NCBI GenBank assembly: GCA_024278555.1
Contig: JAJRSX010000064.1
Coordinates: 1-9,284, forward strand
DNA: 9,284 nucleotides
Direction of reading: 5' to 3'
Origin: a bacterium
GTDB lineage: Bacteria > CG2-30-53-67 > CG2-30-70-394
Of the stretch, positions 1-3,787 are shown in pieces. Below the pieces are notes generated by a model that ran no database searches, was not told the DNA's origin, and saw only the letters and a program-made list of their open reading frames with translations. The translations under genes and the position numbers were made by a program. Within the stretch, counting starts at the first letter, position 1; each line of letters begins with the position of its first letter.

Positions 1-75
1 CACCGGCAGGACACAAATCCGGCTCTTCCGGTCGCTCACGTCCACTCCGATCGTCTGCGTGGTAGCCCGCTTCAT
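1..75 (-). CDS. IS110-family (DEDD) transposase, N-terminal fragment cut by the window edge
   Basis: The minus strand reads 25 codons from an ATG at 75 to the window edge, beginning MKRATTQTIGVDVSDRKSR and continuing ICVLPV. A first beta strand ending in G-[IV]-D-[LV]-S followed by D-R-K-S and a second strand (xCVL) is the usual start of IS110-family recombinases, where this Asp (residue 12) is the first acid of the RuvC-like DEDD site. A strong ribosome site, AAAGGAG, lies eight bases before the ATG. The gene is transcribed away from fabG, so the element lies upstream of the fatty-acid genes. Only 25 residues are visible, so the subgroup (IS110 or IS1111) and whether the element is intact cannot be told. 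Another RuvC-fold protein with the same short motif is possible but less likely. Confidence 0.7.
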   Translation of the reverse strand, partial: MKRATTQTIGVDVSDRKSRICVLPV

Positions 76-220
76 GGTCGCTCTCCTTTGCTTGTGGGCT
101 CCGAGCCCGTGGTTAGCATTGAGCCAGGTGAGAACCTGAGCTCGCGAGGAGAGCGGCCTCCTCATCCCATCTCTGCGGGAGATTCCCACCCGACGAGTAG
201 GGGCCTTTCCGGCCCCCTTT
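76..220 (-). ncRNA. Candidate IS110 bridge-RNA region (structured non-coding end of the element)
   Basis: No gene is visible between the transposase start and fabG. The stretch holds five short inverted repeats in a row: 96-108 (GGGCT/AGCCC, 3-nt loop), 125-138 (CAGGT/ACCTG, 4-nt loop), 146-163 (GAGGAG/CTCCTC, 6-nt loop), 169-183 (ATCTC/GAGAT, 5-nt loop) and 200-216 (GGGGCC/GGCCCC, 5-nt loop). In IS110-group elements such as IS621 the non-coding end upstream of the transposase gene encodes the bridge RNA, on the same strand, with internal loops that pair to target and donor. Position, length and structure fit. The element boundary and the guide loops cannot be identified from one copy, and IS1111-group elements carry the RNA on the other side of the gene, so this is an inference. 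Confidence 0.3.
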
Positions 221-300: not shown

Positions 301-1044
301 ATGTCTCTTCGCGACCGTGTCGCCCTCATCACCGGCGGTGGCCGCGGCATCGGCCGCGCCATCGCCGACCGCCTCGCCGAGGTTGGCTGTCGCATCGTCA
401 TTGCCGATGTCGACCAGGGGGGGGCGGAACAGGCGGCGGCCGAGGTGGGGGTGGCGCACGAGGTCGACGCCCTCGGCGTCGGGGCGAACGTCGCCGACGC
501 GAGCTCGGTGAAGGCGATGGTGGGGGCGGCGGTGGAGGAGTTCGGCGCCCTCGACATCCTGGTGAATAACGCCGGGATCACCCGCGATGGGCTGCTTTTG
601 CGGATGAAGGAGGCGGATTGGGACCAGGTCCTGACCGTCAACCTGAAGGGTGCCTTCCTCTCTACCCAGCAGGCGGCGCGCCCGATGTCGAAGGGGCGGT
701 GGGGGCGGATCGTCAACATCGCCTCCATCGTCGGGGCGATGGGCAACGTGGGGCAGGCGAACTACGTCGCCGCCAAGGCGGGGCTCATCGGGTTGACCAA
801 GACCGTGGCGCGCGAGTACGCCGCCCGCGGCATCACCTGCAACGCCGTCGCCCCCGGCTTCATCGACACGGCCATGACCCAGGCCCTGAGTGACGAGATC
901 CGCGCGGGGCTGATGGCGCAGATCCCCATGAAGCGCCTCGGCAGCCCCGAGGACGTGGCCCACGCGGTCGCCTTCCTGGCCAGCGAGGAGGCGGGCTATG
1001 TCACTGGCCAAGTGCTCCACACCAACGGCGGCATGTACATGTAG
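301..1044 (+). CDS. fabG: 3-oxoacyl-[acyl-carrier-protein] reductase FabG
   Basis: A 247-residue short-chain dehydrogenase that reduces 3-ketoacyl-ACP to 3-hydroxyacyl-ACP with NADPH in the fatty-acid elongation cycle, in the cytoplasm. The Rossmann cofactor motif TGGGRGIG lies at residues 11-18 and the NNAG motif at 89-92. The catalytic tetrad is complete: Asn114 (VNLKG), Ser142 (NIAS), Tyr155 and Lys159 (YVAAK). The C-terminus, TNGGMYM, is close to the FabG hallmark VNGGMYM. Length matches E. coli FabG. The neighbours acpP and fabF confirm FabG rather than another short-chain reductase. A run of eight G at 417-424 encodes Gly-Gly and is a possible slippage site. An insertion sequence starts 225 bp upstream, so the usual upstream partner fabD is not seen, and no clear promoter is visible between 220 and 290. 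Confidence 0.96.
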   Translation: MSLRDRVALITGGGRGIGRAIADRLAEVGCRIVIADVDQGGAEQAAAEVGVAHEVDALGVGANVADASSVKAMVGAAVEEFGALDILVNNAGITRDGLLLRMKEADWDQVLTVNLKGAFLSTQQAARPMSKGRWGRIVNIASIVGAMGNVGQANYVAAKAGLIGLTKTVAREYAARGITCNAVAPGFIDTAMTQALSDEIRAGLMAQIPMKRLGSPEDVAHAVAFLASEEAGYVTGQVLHTNGGMYM

Positions 1045-3721: not shown

Positions 3722-3787
3722 TAGGGGGCCATGCCCGCGACCCGGAGGGTGCTCACTTCGGGTTCGAGCCAGGTGGATAGCGGCCCC

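What the first reader, a model, noticed from the sequence alone, without database searches (positions are those of the whole stretch)
1..220. IS110-type element with a candidate bridge RNA next to the fatty-acid operon
The first 25 residues of a DEDD transposase are followed, on the upstream side, by about 145 bp of non-coding DNA with five consecutive hairpins. IS110-group elements carry their target- and donor-reading bridge RNA in this position. If right, the window contains the structured RNA of an RNA-directed recombinase of unknown specificity, placed just before an essential operon.
Basis: partly seen in the sequence, partly recalled or inferred. Interest (0 to 1): 0.7.

Follow-up and report, generated by a model that had tools for sequence, protein, structure and literature searches.

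The report
IS1111-type element end with structured leader
The window begins with the left end of a high-copy mobile element of a known RNA-guided kind; the hairpins seen there are not its guide RNA, which lies at the other end of the element, but a conserved folded leader that probably keeps its transposase from being translated.

Summary
In detail: window 75..1 (minus) encodes the first 25 residues of an IS110-family DEDD transposase, and 76-220 folds into five hairpins (z -3.8). The element ends at about 171-172, so two of the five hairpins lie wholly or partly in host DNA. About 29 partial copies lie in the same draft genome, mostly at contig ends. Forty-three relatives from at least five phyla show the full anatomy (about 1.4-1.7 kb): a 349-376 aa RuvC-DEDD/Transposase_20 recombinase, subterminal inverted repeats of 11-18 bp (15 bp here), an AG core, and a 3' non-coding region encoding a two-loop guide RNA. 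Guides in that 3' RNA match both flanks of their own elements (permutation p 2e-5 and 5e-5), and this genome's guide CGCCACAGAG matches the repeat sites its copies occupy. Guide order is that of IS1111. The 5' region carries no guide (p > 0.5). It is a conserved three-way junction whose closing stem pairs the subterminal repeat with the Shine-Dalgarno region and abuts the AUG. Most likely it represses transposase translation, as shown experimentally for ISPpu9. New member of a known kind.

The parts
1..75 (-). First 25 codons of an IS110-family (IS1111-type) DEDD transposase, cut by the contig end; holds the first catalytic Asp (GVDVSD)
76..86 (-). 3' arm of leader stem P1 (GGAGAGCGACC); contains the Shine-Dalgarno core GGAG (83-86) and abuts the ATG (75-73)
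96..108 (-). Leader hairpin P3 (GGGCTCGGAGCCC), covarying in relatives
121..143 (-). Leader hairpin P2 (4 bp, one bulged T, 5 bp)
148..158 (-). 5' arm of leader stem P1 (GGCCGCTCTCC), overlapping the subterminal inverted repeat
151..165 (-). Left subterminal inverted repeat ATGAGGAGGCCGCTC (15 bp); inverse copy at the right end in contig C129
166..170 (-). Left terminal extension ATGGG (donor side, right donor)
171..172 (-). Inferred AG core dinucleotide (CT on the plus strand) at the element/target joint
   Evidence: guide and flank matching in relatives
173..185 (-). Host left-target flank (sense ...TCTCCCGCAG); 7 of 10 positions match this genome's guide CGCCACAGAG (count includes the core)
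301..1044 (+). fabG (3-oxoacyl-ACP reductase), first gene of the neighbouring fabG-acpP-fabF-rnc cluster; not part of the element

Best explanation
Window 1-172 is the left end of a high-copy IS1111-type insertion sequence inserted about 130 bp before fabG and pointing away from it. The recombinase is guided by a two-loop bridge/seekRNA encoded in the 3' non-coding region, outside the window. In relatives the first loop holds a right-target guide followed by a left-target guide, and the second loop pairs with the element ends; recombination is at an AG core between subterminal inverted repeats (sequence-supported; chemistry inferred from known families). The hairpins in the window are the 5' leader of the transposase mRNA: a conserved three-way junction in which the transcribed subterminal repeat pairs with the Shine-Dalgarno region up to the AUG (shown by conservation and covariation). 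Inferred: this stem keeps transposase translation low, also on transcripts reading in from outside, until it is opened.
For: Copies and end. Relatives with full recombinases, their Pfam/NCBIfam assignment and the conserved DEDD plus SG. Subterminal repeats of 11-18 bp, 15 bp in this genome. 3' RNA with two stem-loops. LTG/LT 55 of 88 matches against 29.9 expected, p 2e-5; RTG/RT 63 of 72 against 38.6, p 5e-5. This genome's LTG CGCCACAGAG: about half of 23 copies match at 8 or more of 10 positions, against 1.6% of AG sites. Leader: P1 90.5% paired, double changes in 21 cells against 5.9 shuffled; P3 21 against 9.4; P2 arms vary with pairing kept; GG of the SD paired; covariance model finds the window leader at 56.6 bits, though the window was among the 23 sequences it was built from. 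Precedents: IS1111 guide order and 3' NCR (PMC11187229); ISPpu9 5'-UTR that buries the RBS, with a 26-fold rise when weakened (PMC8450116).
Against: No intact copy of the transposase is assembled in this genome; every copy that reads past window position 1 has lost codons from about 25 to 112, so the window copy may be non-autonomous. The right-target guide of this genome's element is not assembled. The search pattern itself fixed five closing pairs of P1 (GGCCG/CGNCC), so only the six inner pairs are independent evidence. Nothing shows expression or translation control here. Placement inside IS1111 rests on anatomy, not on a tree.
Confidence: 0.82

Rival explanations
1. One reading: the 76-220 region encodes the bridge RNA of an IS110-group element.
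For: Right place for the IS110 group, strongly structured, conserved.
Against: Only about 97 nt belong to the element; no target match in 28 leaders (p 0.59 and 0.63) or right-target match in 6; a guide RNA with matching guides is at the 3' end; subterminal repeats are present.
Confidence: 0.03
2. The leader is a binding site for the recombinase or its ribonucleoprotein (autoregulation, or a second RNA cofactor), not mainly a passive translation block.
For: P2 and P3 have conserved shape (bulged T in P2, CTCGAAG-type loop in P3) that SD masking alone does not require.
Against: The SD lies in P1 next to the AUG throughout the family, and leader stems that abut the start codon are mildly enriched in other IS110-family genes with unrelated sequence (post hoc), which favours a translation role. 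No binding data.
Confidence: 0.12
3. The leader's pairing is a by-product of DNA-level constraint: the repeat copy before the ATG is a third recombinase-binding site or a DNA hairpin.
For: The P1 5' arm is the subterminal repeat, so three related copies of one sequence occur in the element.
Against: Does not explain P2 and P3 covariation or the exact abutment to SD and AUG.
Confidence: 0.05

Closest known systems
IS1111 group of the IS110 family (ISEc11, ISKpn4, ISPa11, IS4321/IS5075)
   Same: DEDD recombinase with Transposase_20 and a GL-P----SG motif, subterminal inverted repeats, long 3' non-coding region, guide order right-target (top strand) then left-target (bottom strand)
   Different: Recombinase slightly longer (349-376 aa against the 330-350 aa given for IS1111 in PMC11187229); leader of about 80-100 nt with a conserved three-way junction; highly divergent sequence (best plasmid matches about 36% identity)
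IS621 / IS110 group with bridge RNA (PMC11208160)
   Same: RuvC-DEDD plus serine recombinase, two-loop RNA with target and donor guides, CT/AG core
   Different: In IS621 the RNA is in the left end before the gene; here it is after the gene and subterminal repeats are long
ISPpu9 (IS110/IS492 type) transposase 5'-UTR (PMC8450116)
   Same: 5'-UTR fold that buries the transposase ribosome-binding site; AG repeat; insertion in REP sequences
   Different: 244-nt 5'-UTR with an antisense RNA (Asr9); here a compact 97-nt three-way junction built from the subterminal repeat, no antisense RNA tested

Membership tests
IS110 family (all) | RuvC-like DEDD domain plus Transposase_20 with conserved Ser | tested here: met
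   In full-length relatives; the window itself holds only the first Asp
IS1111 group | Subterminal inverted repeats of 7-17 bp | tested here: met
   11-18 bp in nine relatives, 15 bp in this genome
IS1111 group | Long non-coding region with guide RNA downstream of tnp | tested here: met
   277-502 nt 3' region with guides in relatives; this genome's right end
IS1111 group | Guide order: top-strand match 5' to bottom-strand match | tested here: met
   Right-target guide before left-target guide in the 3' RNAs with both flanks known
IS1111 group | Recombinase clusters with IS1111 transposases in a tree | not tested
   No tree with reference transposases was built
   No guide signal in leaders; left non-coding end only 80-101 nt in the nine measured elements
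RBS-burying transposase leader (ISPpu9-like) | Fold includes the ribosome-binding site and lowers translation | tested here: inconclusive
   Fold and covariation met; effect on translation not testable here

The most novel reading that the evidence does not exclude
The 5' three-way junction is a widely distributed regulatory RNA module of IS1111-type elements in which the subterminal repeat doubles as an anti-Shine-Dalgarno arm, so that transposase output is tied to the state of the ends (for example the right-end repeat in a full-length transcript competing for the same arm).
Probability: 0.2. Interest if true: 0.55.

Novelty: new member of a known kind. Interest (0 to 1): 0.38.

Why it matters
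It corrects the place of the guide RNA, gives a complete guide/target assignment for an IS1111-type family from uncultivated Acidobacteria, Planctomycetes, Gemmatimonadetes, Myxococcota and others, and points to a conserved leader that could control recombinase output, which matters for use of these recombinases as tools.

Tried and rejected
Rfam on the window and on relatives: nothing for either RNA. PF01548 and PF02371 in the own genome: no hit, because copies break inside the gene. Plasmid, phage and viral collections with the window DNA or the 86-aa N-terminus: nothing. Guides in the 5' leader: none. Idea that the SD-masking stem is general in IS110-family genes: duplex energies not different from control genes (p 0.16); exact stems that abut the start codon are enriched (p 0.004 against controls, 0.02 against an inner position), but this test was chosen after seeing examples. 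The family's leader model does not match seven plasmid IS110 loci or three loci of G002, G004 and G005. Promoter and terminator scan of 1-320: none.

Full report
What is in the window. The window is the whole of contig C33 of a 3.06-Mb draft genome in 211 contigs. Its first 75 bases, read on the minus strand, encode MKRATTQTIGVDVSDRKSRICVLPV. DNA matching 1-180 occurs at 29 places in the genome, mostly at contig ends. All share the sequence up to CCTCATCCCATCTC and then diverge, so the element ends near 171-172 and the non-coding leader is about 97 nt, not 145. The rest of 173-300 is host DNA before fabG (301-1044), followed by acpP (1531-1767), fabF and rnc.

Relatives. A DNA pattern drawn from the window and one distant copy (GATGGNATGANNAGGCCG ... 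CGNCCATG) found 43 loci in genomes of Acidobacteria, Planctomycetes, Gemmatimonadetes, Myxococcota, an Anaerolinea and others. Several are complete, with recombinases of 349-376 aa. They match PF01548 and PF02371 and NCBIfam NF033542 'IS110 family RNA-guided transposase', and keep D, E, D, D and the SG motif. Their nearest solved structures by sequence are IS621 and ISCro4. This genome's 86-residue N-terminal piece matches the L066 recombinase in two blocks.

Ends and guide RNA. After the stop codon each complete element has a 277-502 nt non-coding region with conserved blocks (GACTGCG, GATGGCAGC, GACCCCAGCATGCACCGG, AGAGTGCGGATGGAAGC) and, at the far end, GGCCTTCTCATGGAAG, the inverse of the left-end ATGAGAAGGCC. 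The repeats are 11-18 bp long and vary together between elements; in this genome they are ATGAGGAGGCCGCTC / GAGCGGCCTCCTCAT. The 3' RNA folds as two stem-loops. In the first, the strand before GATGGCAGC repeats the left flank of the same element, and the strand after ACTGCG is complementary to the right flank (for example 9 of 9 in L052 and L077). Permuting guides among elements gives p 2e-5 for the left and 5e-5 for the right. In the second loop ATGGAAG repeats the right terminus. This is the IS1111 arrangement and order described by Siddiquee et al. 2024 (PMC11187229), and differs from the IS110 group, where the RNA precedes the gene (PMC11208160).

The same in this genome. A search for the right-end motif found two copies. 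One begins CGCCACAGAGATAGCAGC. The guide CGCCACAGAG fits the left flanks of the copies, typically TTTCACCAC[A/G]GAG: mean 7.2 of 10 identical against 4.5 at AG sites in general, and about half of 23 copies reach 8 or more (1.6% expected). The sites are short dispersed repeats, as is usual for this family. The window copy sits in a poorer match (7 of 10). The right-target guide is not assembled.

What the leader is. In 25 distinct relatives the leader folds as one closing stem P1 (GGCCGGTCTCC/GGAGACCGGCC) enclosing hairpins P2 (four pairs, usually a bulged T, more pairs) and P3 (GGGCTCGAAGCCC type). P1's 3' arm contains the Shine-Dalgarno sequence and ends at the base before AUG. P1 is paired in 90.5% of cells, with double changes in 6 of 11 pairs (21 cells against 5.9 in shuffles); the five outermost pairs were set wholly or mostly by the search pattern, so the six inner ones carry the evidence. 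P3 gives 21 against 9.4. Median fold z is -3.3. The leader has no signal for either target flank, so it is not a guide RNA. The best reading is a translation-repressing leader, with the subterminal repeat serving as the masking arm. ISPpu9 gives the precedent: its 5'-UTR buries the RBS, and weakening it raised expression 26-fold (PMC8450116). Shown here: architecture, conservation, covariation. Inferred: repression and its timing.

Limits. Placement as IS1111 rests on anatomy; no tree was made. Whether the window copy is intact cannot be told. In this genome the copies that can be read past window position 1 have lost recombinase codons from about 25 to 112, including the Glu and both later Asp, and the window contig ends at exactly that joint. 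That two contigs stop at this base suggests a second continuation, perhaps the full gene (inference).

Noticed in passing
window 1; L007, L005, L004, L101: Four copies in this genome that read past window position 1 share an internal deletion of about 85 codons that removes the catalytic Glu and the two later Asp; the window contig and C69 stop at exactly this joint. This looks like an amplified non-autonomous derivative.
   Followed up: partly
L008, L013, L023, L029 (window position 22): Four copies are broken at or very near the same inner base (window 22, sense GGAAGAGC) and continue into four different flanks, with no right end found nearby. The cause is unknown; GGAAG resembles the true right terminus.
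   Followed up: partly
right ends, e.g. L073 about 3736-3775, L052, L066: TTGACA lies shortly before the right-end repeat in many relatives, which would place a -35 box for a promoter formed when the ends join in the circle.
   Followed up: no
L048 3' end (minus orientation): A second GATGGGATGAG left end follows the right end of the first element after about 15 bases, so two copies lie in tandem; Rfam also finds group II intron pieces in this locus.
   Followed up: no
window about 1100-1125 and 1203-1229: The sequence CACCGTACAACCAGTACGCCTCCGGT occurs twice between fabG and acpP; not explained.
   Followed up: no
L035 1334-1444, L036 about 1400-1480, L107 about 1985-2049 (IS5075), L104: Other IS110-family genes of unrelated sequence also have a stem that takes in the Shine-Dalgarno region and abuts the start codon.
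   Followed up: partly
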